From Isoetes taiwanensis (Eukaryota > Streptophyta > Lycopodiopsida > Isoetales > Isoetaceae), in assembly GCA_021234155.1 (NCBI GenBank), contig JAJEKV010000023.1:7416009-7480008 (forward strand): a DNA stretch of 64,000 nucleotides, given 5' to 3'. This document shows, piece after piece, positions 1,998-15,480 of the stretch (its first letter is position 1; each line of letters starts with the position of its first letter). The notes below the pieces were generated by a model, which worked only from the letters and a program-made list of their open reading frames with translations, ran no database searches and was not told the origin of the DNA. The translations under genes and the position numbers were made by a program.

Positions 1998-2328
1998 TGA
2001 CCATATGGTACTAGAACTGCACCGGGTACCCATGGGATGATGGGGAGAGGCTCGAGGAAGCTTATAATTATGATATAATATGTCTGATGGAGACATGGGA
2101 ACACAATACCAATCGACTGCCAGAGGAAGAGGCGTATCGGCTCTTCACATGTTGTAAAGAGAAAGATTTTAAGATAGGAAGAGGGAGCGCGGGTCTAGCT
2201 TGCTATATAAAAGATAGTGTAGCCAATAAGGCATGTATTGTGCATTCAGATATCAATAAAAGATACATGCTGCTAAGCATACAATTACAAAATAAAAAAG
2301 ATTTAATCATGATTATAGCATATCCACC
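1998..2328 (+). pseudogene. LINE endonuclease domain, N-terminal half
   Basis: The frame reads W-Y-stop-N-C-T-G-Y-P-W near 2005, then ICLMETWEHNTN from about 2081, matching the start of apurinic-type LINE endonucleases (WNCNG...E.W, with the metal-binding Glu in the METWE motif). It continues through ACYIKDS to MIIAYPP at 2311-2328, where the frame is cut by the TIR-bounded insertion. There is an in-frame TAG near 2011. The second half, with the GDL and SHR motifs, lies at 14929-15480. Confidence 0.65.
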
Positions 2329-2345
2329 CCGGGGGGTTCACCTCT
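2328..2345 (+). repeat. Left terminal inverted repeat of Pack-type element
   Basis: CCCGGGGGGTTCACCTCT, exact inverse of 14910-14927. The outermost C overlaps the flanking duplication. A subterminal CATGTGCGT follows 14 bp further in (15 bp at the other end). Confidence 0.65.
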
Positions 2346-2749
2346 ATGTAAGGGGGTGGCATGTGCGTTCCAGGGGTCAGGAGAAGCCCCTCCGTATACG
2401 GCTCGCCCCCCATAGAAACCCCTATGTATACAGTCTGGTGTTGGTGAAAAATAATACCTGATTCCATACTTTTACGCCTAGTCCAATCCCCATTGACCCT
2501 ACCCTTAACCGTATTTTTACATCAAGATATCACTAATGTAGCCTACCCTCTACCTTACATTTACATTCAACACCATTTACTCCAAACATTAAACCCTCGT
2601 TAGTGCTTGAGCCCAAGTCTGCCCTGGCGTTACCCAGGCCTATACCATCACTTGCAGTTCTACTTACTATTTTGTGTATTACAAACATAGTACTGTTTTA
2701 TTGAGCAGGTCAGTCCGAGTCTACCTTCTTTATACCCTAGACTCTCCAT
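2346..2749. other. Subterminal region, no gene
   Basis: GC-rich subterminal DNA of the Pack-type element, including the inverted match ATAGAAACCCCTAT near 2410, followed by sequence without recognisable coding content up to the last enolase exon. Confidence 0.5.
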
Positions 2750-3124
2750 GAAGAAAGTAAAGCCCCAACAGGAAGGATCATGAATTCCTGAAATAGCATA
2801 CCGTCACCATAATATCAACACAACAAGAAACAGCAGAATATAGAAGCCTGACCTGCATGGCAAGCTTGTTTCCTGCATGTGAACCTCCATTGATGACATT
2901 AAATGCAGGTACTGGCAGGACGAGTTTTGTGTTTCCCACAAGATTTGCTATATGCTGGCATGACGAAATAGTTCAGCATCATAGGTTTCATATAAAATTC
3001 AAAATAATTTACAAATGACTATGCTAATACTGGAGCCCATATTTAACGGTAAATTAGATAGATGTCGTTCTCGATCTAAAAATAAATTAAGGAAACAAAG
3101 CTCAAACAAATAGATCCAAGTTCA

Positions 3125-3455
3125 TGAATATGTAGCATAATAACAGGGGGTTTCTTTTGTATTTTTGTACGTTTTTTCCTATGGTTTTTATATGATTTGG
3201 TGGTCGTATTACATAAGGTGTACTAATTGGTACATCTAGAGTGCGCCAAGTATTTGTATACAACTTATGTTTTTTTTTTTTTTGGCTGTCCTTAATGGTG
3301 AAGATCAAAGGGCTTACAACAAAAGCCCTCTTAAAAAAGACAACATCTAAGGGCTTACAATAAAAACCCTCCTTATGAAAAAAAAAAACAAAAAATTAAA
3401 AAAAGGGGAAGACATGCAAACCATCGTCAATATGATATTAGGGTTTCAGAAAGGG
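3125..3455. repeat. R2 dispersed repeat, copy 1
   Basis: It begins ATATGTAGCATAATAACAGG and includes GTACATCTAGAGTGC and ACAACAAAAGCCCTCTT. The second copy is at 30245-30480, same strand, with similarity continuing to ACATGCAA..C near the right end. It lies in the enolase intron, upstream of the EPL fragment (separated by the later copia insertion). Nature unknown. Confidence 0.7.
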
Positions 3456-3476
3456 CTTCATGGAGCCAGAGAACTA

Positions 3477-3497
3477 GGGCAAGGAGCGATTATGGGC
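3477..3497. repeat. Half of an imperfect 17-bp direct repeat at the copia target
   Basis: GGGCAAGGAGCGATTAT lies just left of the copia element and GGGCAAGGAGCAGTTAT just right of it (9312-9328), each followed by GGGC. The pre-insertion site was therefore probably a short tandem duplication; the 5-bp TSD TGGGC is at the unit boundary. Confidence 0.6.
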
Positions 3498-4275
3498 TGA
3501 TGTAATTTAAAGATGATGAACTCAAGTATATATATATATGTCTAGCAAGATTAGCAATTTACAACAATCGAGTTCCAATGATGATCTAAGCAAAAGCCAA
3601 GATATGGTCACTTATTTTACTAGATCATCTTCACAAAATCATCATTCAAGTTTCTAGAACAATATTCTTAGGACAGTAATACCTTGGTCAATAATAGTTT
3701 AGCCAATAAAACTATTGAAACACTGTAGCATACATTTACTGTTCATCGGGCATTGACCCGAACACTGTAGCCATGTTGACTCTCGGCATTTCCATTCAAA
3801 AATCAAGCTCGAACCTGCTCCTCCTCCATTATATATATTTGTAAGCGTTCTACCCAGCTATATGCATAGTTCCGACGGTTATGGGGAATTATTTTCTTTC
3901 CAATCTTGGTCTTCCCAATCCTCGATGATATCCCACAGGACAAGTCTAAGAAAATTAGCTTTTCACAATTATCCCACAGAACTAATTGTTCAACACGGCT
4001 TTTCGACCATTGAACCAAATTTGCCTTAACAAAATATTCTTCTTCACCAAATAGATTAACCCTTCAAACATTATACTAACCTTGTGGTGACTTTGTTTTC
4101 CAATAGATTAGATCTGCAAGTAGACCTACTGCCACTGCTTCTCATAGGTAAATAATGCAGACATATTAAGCTTATGTTGATCTACACTACTGCCACTGCT
4201 TCTCATAGTTAGATCAACACAAATAACCATATCATGTGCTAACTTTGCAGGATTAGGAGATGAATATTTCCATCA
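3498..4275 (-). repeat. Copia 3' LTR
   Basis: 778 bp, plus-strand TGATGTAATTT to TTTCCATCA. The terminal TCA is shared with the gag-pol stop codon read on the minus strand. A 71-codon frame inside the LTR occurs in both copies but has no recognisable domain and is not called. Confidence 0.95.
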
Positions 4276-13689: not shown

Positions 13690-13713
13690 AAACCCTTCGG
13701 GGCGGGGGTTTTT
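13690..13713 (+). terminator. GC hairpin plus T-run in LINE 3' region
   Basis: AAACCC and GGGTTT arms around TTCGGGGCGG, followed by TTTTTTA. A near-identical motif is at 47735-47757. Resembles a structured RNA 3' element; function not demonstrated. Confidence 0.4.
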
Positions 13714-14220
13714 TAATCCTGTCAGTAATATGCTTGCTGCTCTCTTTTTGTTTGGGTCCCATAGGTCAATTGGTCTCCGTGGATGCTAAAACCCTATTCT
13801 ATTCTATTCTAATATAGTTGTGAATGTTAGCAACAGCCTGCAAATGATAATATGAACTTTAATGACATTCCATATAAATAATCACAATGCTTATTATTTG
13901 GATGATAAACCTTTGAAATACCCTTTCCAAGGTAATCCTTTCCTCCATCTCTCAATTCAAGTGCTTCGTATATACTTGATTAACAGAGGATACATGGAGA
14001 CATGGAGAATGTAAAGGACCATATTTCCAATTTATTCATGATGAACAGTAAAAGCTCACATGAGCAACAAGCAACAATGAGCTTCCCGTTCAAAAAGGTT
14101 ATGAGATTTATACCCTACCAGTAGAAGCACCACTGGGTACAGCAGCTCTGTAAATGCATCCATCTGAAGTTGTAACACCAACCTGAATAGCAGAAGTGCA
14201 CAATGAGTTTACACATGCAT

Positions 14221-14582
14221 AATAAGGAGCATTTGATATACTCTCCATGCCACCAGCTACTACTATATCATTCTGGCCTAGCTGAATACTTTGAGCAGCA
14301 AACATTATTGCTGTGAACATAAGAACAGAATTATCATAACAATAAGTTATCACAATAGAGAAATCGAGAACACATGTCAATCATATGCAAACTTTATCTG
14401 TGCCATACCCTTCATTCCTGATGCGCAGACTTTGTTGACAGTTGTGCAAACCACAGAGGCAGACAAGCCCGCACCCAATGCAGCCTATCTCGCTGGAGTC
14501 TGGCCAACATTAGCACTAAGCACATTTCCAAAAAAAACCTCCTGAACCGTATCTGGTTCGATGCCTGCTCGTTGTACCGTAC
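14221..14582 (-). pseudogene. Acetyl-CoA acetyltransferase (thiolase) fragment
   Basis: Thiolases condense two acetyl-CoA at the start of the mevalonate pathway. Exon 14582-14409 reads [20 protein letters not shown], then CTTVNKVCASGMK, which holds the active-site Cys motif; it ends at a GT donor. Exon 14310-14221 continues [20 protein letters not shown] and [10 protein letters not shown], then stops matching. One codon is TAG (PAR-stop-AALGAG), a single change from CAG. N-terminal and all later exons are absent. Downstream on the same strand, about 40 bp on, comes the acceptor of an enolase exon, so two unrelated genes are joined within an intron. Both parts lie inside the TIR-bounded element. 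Confidence 0.85.
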
Positions 14583-14909
14583 CTAAATAACACAACGCAG
14601 AGCAAGCAAAAAAGGTAAATTTGTAAGAAGATAATCTGGGTAGAGATTGAAAACTTACCACGAAAACTGTACAGGGAAGAAAAAATTAAAAACATACCTC
14701 CGGAAATACGTATCTGCCTGGCAACCAGCAAAGCATCTAACCCCTTGAACGTATGTCTAAGTGCATACCCCTGCAGGAAAACCGCTCCTCAAACCGTGGA
14801 AATACAGCTCCTCCGGCGCCAAAATGTGGGAGACACCTTAAGTATACGTACTTCAAAAACTAAAAAAAAAACCCCTTCATCGCCCACGCACATGTTTTGT
14901 ACGGAAAAA
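14583..14909. other. Right subterminal region of Pack-type element
   Basis: No gene recognised. A short minus-strand frame ending CGGAG|GTATG near 14697 could be a captured exon edge (ALLVARQIRISGG) but cannot be assigned. Confidence 0.3.
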
Positions 14910-14927
14910 AGAGGTGAACCCCCCGGG
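14910..14927 (-). repeat. Right terminal inverted repeat of Pack-type element
   Basis: Exact complement of 2328-2345. It is followed after one base by TACCCACC, the right-hand target duplication, which still encodes the Y-P-P of the interrupted LINE endonuclease. Confidence 0.65.
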
Positions 14928-14928
14928 T

Positions 14929-15480
14929 TACCCACCAAACAGTGACAAACTGGAATTGCTGGACCTGGGGGAGAGTATCATGAAATGGAAGGACCAGGGG
15001 CCGATGATACTGATGGGAGACCTGATCAGGAGCAAGCACAAATCACAAGTGTAAACGAGATAAGTGGATGGATACAAACCGCGAGACCACAAGAATGGAA
15101 AAGAAGTACAGAGGACAAGGCGGAAATCAATACCAAAGGCGAGTTACTGATAGAGGTATTCACGACAGCAGGGGTCATTATAGCCAACGGGGTATAAAGA
15201 TGGAGTGGATCAGGGGAATTCATGAGTCAGAATACACATAGGAAAAGTATAGTCGATTATGTAATCTTGAACGACAAAGCCGAGGCAAACATCTCAAGCT
15301 TCATACTGGCAGATTGGCCGACTGGGAAACGGGAGAGCCATAGACTCATCCAATTGGCAATAAGGCAGGAAGAACATGCATAGACGGAAGTACCAGACAA
15401 AGAAAAAGACACAAACATGAAAATATACTTCCAGAATAAAGACACATAGACCTCCACAGAAAATGCCAGATCAGAGATGG
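14929..15480 (+). pseudogene. LINE endonuclease domain, C-terminal half
   Basis: Reads YPPNSDKLELLDLGESIMK, then GPMILMGDLI (the GDLN motif with Ile in place of Asn), IVDYVILND near 15253 and GKRESHRLIQLAI (the SDH/SHR motif) near 15330. A frameshift lies near 15050 and a stop at 15195-15197. Joins in frame to 2328. Confidence 0.7.

What the first reader, a model, noticed from the sequence alone, without database searches (positions are those of the whole stretch)
2321..14936. Pack-type transposon carrying pieces of three host genes
Short inverted repeats and a 7/8-matching 8-bp duplication bound a segment whose only non-mobile content is exons, with introns, of a thiolase, an enolase and an EPL gene. 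Because introns are kept, capture was at the DNA level. Without later insertions it would be about 4.7 kb. If confirmed, it is a multi-gene capturing element outside the well-studied angiosperm Pack-MULE cases. Observed: TIRs, TSD, exons. Inferred: that one transposition moved all of it.
Basis: partly seen in the sequence, partly recalled or inferred. Interest (0 to 1): 0.9.

Follow-up and report, generated by a model that had tools for sequence, protein, structure and literature searches.

The report
P-element-like transposon carrying plant gene pieces
A jumping gene in a plant genome, probably that of a seedless quillwort, carries pieces of two host genes, one copied almost unchanged with its introns; it belongs to a family of hundreds of copies whose own enzyme has a predicted shape like that of the fruit-fly P element.

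The parts
2320..2327 (.). left target-site duplication ATATCCAC
   Evidence: abuts the repeat; 6 of 8 match with the right copy; LINE frame closes across the site; 8-bp duplications in 17 of 29 family loci
2328..2344 (+). left terminal inverted repeat CCCGGGGGGTTCACCTC
2328..2572 (+). left terminal domain, about 245 bp, shared by the family
   Evidence: 97.6% to the consensus of 20 elements; extent: median 245
2760..3127 (-). captured enolase DNA: exons 2853-2954 (HIANL...KLAMQ) and 2760-2787 (start of EFMILPVGA) with introns; 98.4% to the parent gene L060
3128..11805 (.). later separate insertion in an enolase intron (edges uncertain by a base or two): FRO-like and EPL exons, LTR retrotransposon, MITE-like arms; no target duplication, target A^T
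   Evidence: absent from L036 and L050 and from the parent gene
3127..3340 (+). left end of the inner insertion, a high-copy family
   Evidence: 3177 first-look candidates, 40 scored at 89-100% (the window's own copy included), each beginning at query base 1 or 2; second window copy at 30247
3127..3141 (+). inner inverted repeat AATATGTAGCATAAT, left copy
3498..9310 (-). nested LTR retrotransposon (copia type by my reading), TSD TGGGC, 1422-aa ORF at 4276-8541
   Evidence: a 300-nt stretch of the two LTRs is identical
9405..9596 (+). FRO-like first exon (label recalled)
   Evidence: not confirmed
9831..9932 (+). FRO-like second exon (label recalled)
   Evidence: not confirmed
10435..10923 (+). 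reading frame with the EPL1 (enhancer of polycomb-like) exon
   Evidence: PF10513 5e-11
11272..11286 (-). inner inverted repeat, right copy (1 mismatch), about 520 bp inside the right edge of the insertion
   Evidence: 4 of 20000 shuffles of 10924-11400 have such a match; the stretch tested was chosen after the match was seen
11368..11808 (.). MITE-like unit with long inverted arms (11402-11514, 11696-11808); the insertion ends at its right arm, whose last 3 bases coincide with host sequence
11806..12166 (-). captured enolase DNA (exons 11841-11921, 12000-12086 and the exon part ALIGK), 98.0% to the parent
12167..13810 (+). later LINE fragment with ATTCT tail inside an enolase exon (left edge approximate)
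   Evidence: read; parent gene is uninterrupted here
13811..14222 (-). captured enolase DNA (exons 13811-13837 cut by the LINE, 13911-13973, 14117-14182), 97.1% to the parent
14216..14311 (-). captured thiolase (acetyl-CoA acetyltransferase) exon AIMFAAQ...SNAPYYA, cut at the enolase joint
14407..14583 (-). captured thiolase exon GTVQRAG...CASGMKG, with an in-frame stop
14663..14927 (-). right terminal domain shared with other elements (conserved core about 205 bp)
   Evidence: 96.2% to consensus over 208 sites
14911..14927 (-). right terminal inverted repeat
14928..14935 (.). right target-site duplication TTACCCAC
42845..42950 (+). decayed left end of another family member
   Evidence: score 45 against shuffle mean 18, largest 29 of 300

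Best explanation
The segment is a non-autonomous cut-and-paste DNA transposon of a family with about 490 pairs' worth of ends in a plant genome, probably that of a seed-free quillwort. Shown: its 17-bp ends, about 245- and 205-bp terminal domains and 8-bp duplications recur in other complete elements; its interior is a DNA copy of about 1.15 kb of an enolase gene, introns included, joined to part of a thiolase gene; FRO-like and EPL exons, an LTR retrotransposon, a MITE-like unit and a LINE fragment came later. Shown by shared ends: longer members carry a transposase gene. Inferred: that transposase, whose relative's predicted fold is that of the P element, acts on the shared ends and moves the gene-carrying copies. 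Inferred, after the gap-repair model that I recall: capture happens while the gap left by excision is repaired, when the repair strand copies from another gene and returns to the other end of the element.
Against: The window's own duplication is 6/8, low for a copy whose enolase is about 2% from its parent. The thiolase parent was not located: seven identical searches did not complete. 9 of 20 single-end loci show no partner with a matching duplication. The P-like assignment rests on one predicted model (mean pLDDT 76.3) of a Riccia protein 34% identical to the L052 reading; Pfam gave only two unrelated matches under their cut-offs (nSTAND3 0.1, Thioredoxin_4 4.5e-4) and PDB sequences none. 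The transposase readings I have carry stops or frame breaks. No transposition, excision or expression was tested.
Confidence: 0.82

Rival explanations
1. One element captured thiolase, enolase and EPL (and FRO-like) and moved them together.
For: All lie between one pair of repeats.
Against: The enolase intron is uninterrupted in the parent gene and in L036 and L050 where the FRO/EPL block sits; the block starts at the end of a different high-copy family and has inverted repeats of its own (4 of 20000 shuffles).
Confidence: 0.07
2. The thiolase-enolase joint was not made by two fresh captures: the element took thiolase plus the right end from an L055-like element by exchange, and enolase from the gene.
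For: L055 carries the same thiolase next to the same right end and runs on past the window's joint, into what I read as the next thiolase exon (recalled). L035 also has thiolase by the right end. The joint at 14219-14222 is a true break on the enolase side too: L050 matches the gene for about 120 bp beyond it at 89.6%, the window does not. Thiolase and enolase sides have about 4 bases (TTAT) in common there. Other elements share interior blocks in different company, e.g. L036 with L050, with L037/L039 and with L034.
Against: Window and L055 thiolase are 91% and 79% alike in two stretches, so L055 itself was not the donor; without the thiolase parent a separate capture cannot be excluded.
Confidence: 0.45
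3. A Pack-MULE, i.e. moved by a Mutator-like transposase.
For: Pack-MULEs are the classical gene-capturing elements (recalled).
Against: Duplications are 8 bp (15 perfect, 2 at 7/8 of 29 loci) whereas MULEs typically make 9 (recalled); no Pfam family at 0.01 in six frames of L042; the transposase relative folds like P.
Confidence: 0.05
4. No transposon: a chromosomal duplication or old gene region with chance inverted repeats.
For: Gene fragments occur elsewhere in this window too.
Against: About 975 genome copies of the end against 7 in control; 17 of 29 loci complete with duplications; LINE frame closes at the empty site.
Confidence: 0.01

Closest known systems
Pack-TYPE transposons of rice, maize and Arabidopsis (Pack-MULE, Pack-CACTA, Pack-hAT, Pack-PIF, Pack-Mariner; PMC8903248: abstract, sections 8 and 9 and passages seen)
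   Same: Non-autonomous TIR elements, fixed-length duplications, clusters of copies, interior host-gene pieces, terminal parts more conserved than the interior.
   Different: The transposase is of none of those superfamilies; the host is probably a seed-free plant; over 1 kb of one gene with introns is traced to its parent gene; several members share interior blocks in different combinations.
P-element superfamily of animals (Drosophila P, zebrafish P-like/THAP9, Galileo; PMC7776569: passages seen; Galileo: search listings 125, 126 only)
   Same: 8-bp duplications, short TIRs, transposase whose predicted fold is closest to P.
   Different: No THAP domain found; TIR 17 bp instead of 31 or 13; in a plant; gene capture by a P element was not mentioned in the passages I saw.
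Helitrons (for the inner FRO/EPL block)
   Same: No target duplication, insertion between A and T, gene pieces on one strand.
   Different: Ends lack the 5' TC and 3' CTRR (motifs recalled); the block has an inverted repeat.

Membership tests
Pack-TYPE transposon | terminal inverted repeats with a target duplication | tested here: met
   the window's own duplication is 6/8
Pack-TYPE transposon | more than one related element in the genome | tested here: met
   495 + 480 against 4 + 3
Pack-TYPE transposon | interior from a host gene, parent identifiable | tested here: met
   enolase. Thiolase parent: not answered
Pack-TYPE transposon | no transposase of its own | tested here: met
   no match of five family proteins anywhere in the window at 1e-6
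P-element superfamily | 8-bp target duplication | tested here: met
   15 perfect and 2 at 7/8 of 29 loci
P-element superfamily | transposase fold as in P (split RNase H with insertion domain) | tested here: met
   on P0014, a Riccia relative, not on a protein of this genome; the insertion domain was not examined by itself
P-element superfamily | catalytic D, D, E | tested here: inconclusive
   conserved AEDET, SDGDSRRR and GSDxCE blocks; not assigned to the P residues, and the second block is out of frame in the L052 reading
P-element superfamily | THAP DNA-binding domain | tested here: not met
   no THAP hit in 7 relatives and one L052 frame at nominal E<=10; PMC7776569 says THAP is restricted to animals
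P-element superfamily | GTP as cofactor | not testable with these tools
   needs protein
Pack-MULE | 9-bp duplication (recalled) | tested here: not met
   8 bp
hAT | 8-bp duplication | tested here: met
hAT | hAT transposase domain in the autonomous member | tested here: not met
   no Pfam family at 0.01 in six frames of L042, none
Helitron (inner block) | TC start and CTRR end (recalled) | tested here: not met
   ends read directly

The most novel reading that the evidence does not exclude
Land plants outside the seed plants harbour an unlisted branch of the P-element superfamily without a THAP domain, and in this genome it is a mass gene-capturing machine ('Pack-P'): hundreds of copies, genes taken up with introns, the same enolase gene taken at least twice, and captured blocks reassorted between copies.
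Probability: 0.6. Interest if true: 0.82.

Novelty: new variant of a known kind. Interest (0 to 1): 0.74.

Why it matters
The paper I read on gene capture by TIR elements (PMC8903248) covers MULE, CACTA, hAT, PIF and Mariner elements in rice, maize and Arabidopsis. A P-like family doing it in a seed-free plant would add a superfamily and a lineage. Because the enolase parent gene is identified and about 2% diverged, and the same gene appears in other copies at other ages, how TIR elements acquire gene DNA becomes testable copy by copy. There is also a practical side: the I. taiwanensis repeat library dropped repeats with plant-protein similarity (PMC8566536, passages), so such elements could be masked poorly and counted as genes (inference).

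Tried and rejected
Led nowhere: a partner end for the decayed copy at 42845; a de novo TIR+TSD scan of the window, which missed even the main element at its strict setting (2 pairs found, 0-1 in five shuffles); Pfam, PDB and protein searches for the FRO-like exons (one search had 893 candidates, none at E<=10); a target duplication of the inner block (none); a link between the degenerate ORFs at 27246-30240 and these ends (not tested beyond Pfam).

Rejected after test: my own first reading that the window's enolase came from an L050-like element; the gene itself is closer. Also rejected: that 'GYALRHTFKG' near the right end is a further captured gene; it lies in the shared terminal domain.

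Literature: the ten paper searches showed in their listings no P-superfamily gene capture and no gene-capturing family in Isoetes (0 papers for Isoetes + gene capture + transposon). One search was too broad to be useful; the three papers (Pack-MULE + lycophyte) were seen as a listing only. This covers open-licence PMC only. PMC9033089 Table 1 lists Tc1-Mariner, hAT, Sola, MuDR-Foldback, PIF-Harbinger and CACTA as land-plant TIR superfamilies (passage). PMC10541799 (I. sinensis): a search of its main text for six terms gave none; nothing else of it was read. PMC13317346: abstract, section 7 and an empty term search.

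Full report
WHAT WAS CHECKED. The repeat is real: CCCGGGGGGTTCACCTC is exact at both ends and not expected by chance. The flanks are a LINE endonuclease reading frame (my reading) that closes when the segment is taken out (...LIMIIAYPPNSDKLELLDLGES...). The unit therefore arrived by insertion. The duplication abutting the repeats is ATATCCAC/TTACCCAC, 6 of 8.

THE FAMILY. The window lies at G000:C1027:7416009-7480008 of a 1,658,258,908-bp, 1110-contig assembly. PMC8566536 (passages) reports 1.66 Gb in 204 scaffolds plus 909 contigs for Isoetes taiwanensis; the identification is by this fit only. 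The repeat at up to one mismatch occurs 495 + 480 times, against 4 + 3 for the reversed pattern; the call lists 100 of these places. All 9 pairs, chosen because both ends are exact, have a perfect abutting 8-bp duplication. Of the 20 single ends, 8 have a partner with 7/8 or 8/8, 3 (L051, L055, L057) show 7, 7 and 5 matching bases shifted by 1-3 positions, and 9 show none. The 17 complete elements are 2.5-7.4 kb. About 245 bp at the left and 205 bp at the right are conserved; the window's ends are 97.6% and 96.2% identical to the consensus of 20 elements, while the more decayed members fall to 61-80%.

OTHER CARGO. Six-frame Pfam scans of the interiors of nine elements gave an AAA_12 helicase piece in L037, Lipase3_N and Mad3/BUB1 pieces among L031-L034, and TBP, choline transporter and enolase pieces among L035, L036, L038, L041. 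Interior blocks recur in different company: L036 shares enolase with L050 and the window, 520 bp with L037/L039, and its last 610 bp with L034. That is what exchange between copies would leave.

WHERE THE CARGO CAME FROM. Enolase_C matches in the same genome point to an enolase gene on C919. Its exons, from [24 protein letters not shown] to the last one, can be read in order in two fetched pieces (L061; L060). Window 2760-3126, 11809-12166 and 13811-14222 match L060 positions 1155-5 in order, exons and introns, at 98.4, 98.0 and 97.1%; overall 97.8% of 1137 sites. L036 and L050 carry older copies (94.7% and 92.9%; 92.8% and 90.9% with gaps counted) with other end points. Of 70 variable sites with letters in all four sequences, the window shares a change with either of them at 3. 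The gene was thus most likely taken more than once. By position alone, three more enolase pieces (on C908, C907, C910) lie 1.6-3.4 kb from listed ends; I did not fetch them. Four of the loci's list of 62 matches lie near listed ends (L036 among them); most of the rest I could not test, because the list of ends stops at C970 and at exact matches. The thiolase piece sits next to the right terminal domain, as in L055 and L035. L055 runs on past the window's joint, into what I read as more thiolase (recalled). L050 follows the enolase gene for about 120 bp past the joint at 89.6%, where the window has no match. So the joint at 14219-14222 is a true break, with about 4 bases in common. Whether thiolase was taken from its gene or from another element is open, since that search did not complete.

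WHAT IS NOT PART OF IT. The enolase intron reads CATGATAAGC in L036 and L050, and the parent gene is likewise uninterrupted there. In the window about 3128-11805 sits between the A and T. Its left end is a family of its own: 3177 first-look candidates, of which 40 were scored at 89-100%, the window's own copy included, each starting at the same base or one later. It has a short inverted repeat about 520 bp inside the other edge and shows no duplication. The EPL exon and two exons that I read as a ferric reductase start (recalled; searches found nothing) are inside this block. A second copy of its left end at 30247 is followed by a condensin-2 match (2.5e-5, under the curated cut-off). So the window appears to hold two different kinds of gene-carrying unit, one inside the other. 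The LTR retrotransposon (3498-9310) and the LINE fragment (about 12167-13810) are further insertions.

HOW IT PROBABLY WORKS. Transposase from the long copies recognises the shared terminal domains and moves both long and gene-carrying copies. The gene pieces keep introns, so they were copied as DNA. PMC8903248 (section 9) supports fusion of neighbouring insertions; PMC13317346 (section 7) adds that an alternative, yet undiscovered mechanism may take up fragments of unlinked genes. The enolase parent lies on another scaffold, keeps its copy, and the joint has only about 4 bases in common, which fits copying during gap repair (a model I recall) better than fusion. This step is inference.

VERDICT. 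A real, fairly recent, gene-carrying transposon of a large family; two captured genes, not three; the transposase is P-like by fold. The capture principle is known; the superfamily, the probable host lineage and the repeated take-up of one identified gene did not appear in the listings of my searches.

Noticed in passing
30247-31123: A second copy of the inner insertion's left end is followed by a condensin complex subunit 2 match (Cnd2, 2.5e-5, under the curated cut-off, 30974-31123): perhaps another gene-piece-bearing unit of that family.
   Followed up: partly
27246-30240: Degenerate reading frames with FSDGAASQFK and HGKGEHDG look like a different transposase family (impression, no Pfam hit). 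A frame that looks similar by eye flanks element L035.
   Followed up: no
21483, 44239, 49301, 49989: A repeat GGGTTGCCCCTAGGGGGGCAAACCC plus flanking bases occurs four times on the + strand; two copies lie upstream of different gene pieces (MT-A70 at about 45966-46331; LRRNT_2 at 50119-50505).
   Followed up: no
42845: Decayed left end of the same P-like family, no partner found.
   Followed up: partly
L044:1849 and L044:3306: The inner family's end occurs twice in this locus, once fused to sequence like the MITE-like unit.
   Followed up: no
52088-56860: Apparently intact multi-exon gene resembling a chloroplast heavy-metal ATPase (HMA1; recalled, not tested); beside it a superfamily-1 helicase (58057-60072, -) and a PPR gene (61194-61700).
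   Followed up: no
3498-9310: Young-looking LTR retrotransposon: single 1422-aa frame, a 300-nt stretch of the two LTRs identical.
   Followed up: no
G000 C1036, C1047, C1078: More enolase pieces with similar exon spacing; not checked for the repeats because the list of ends stops before these contigs.
   Followed up: no
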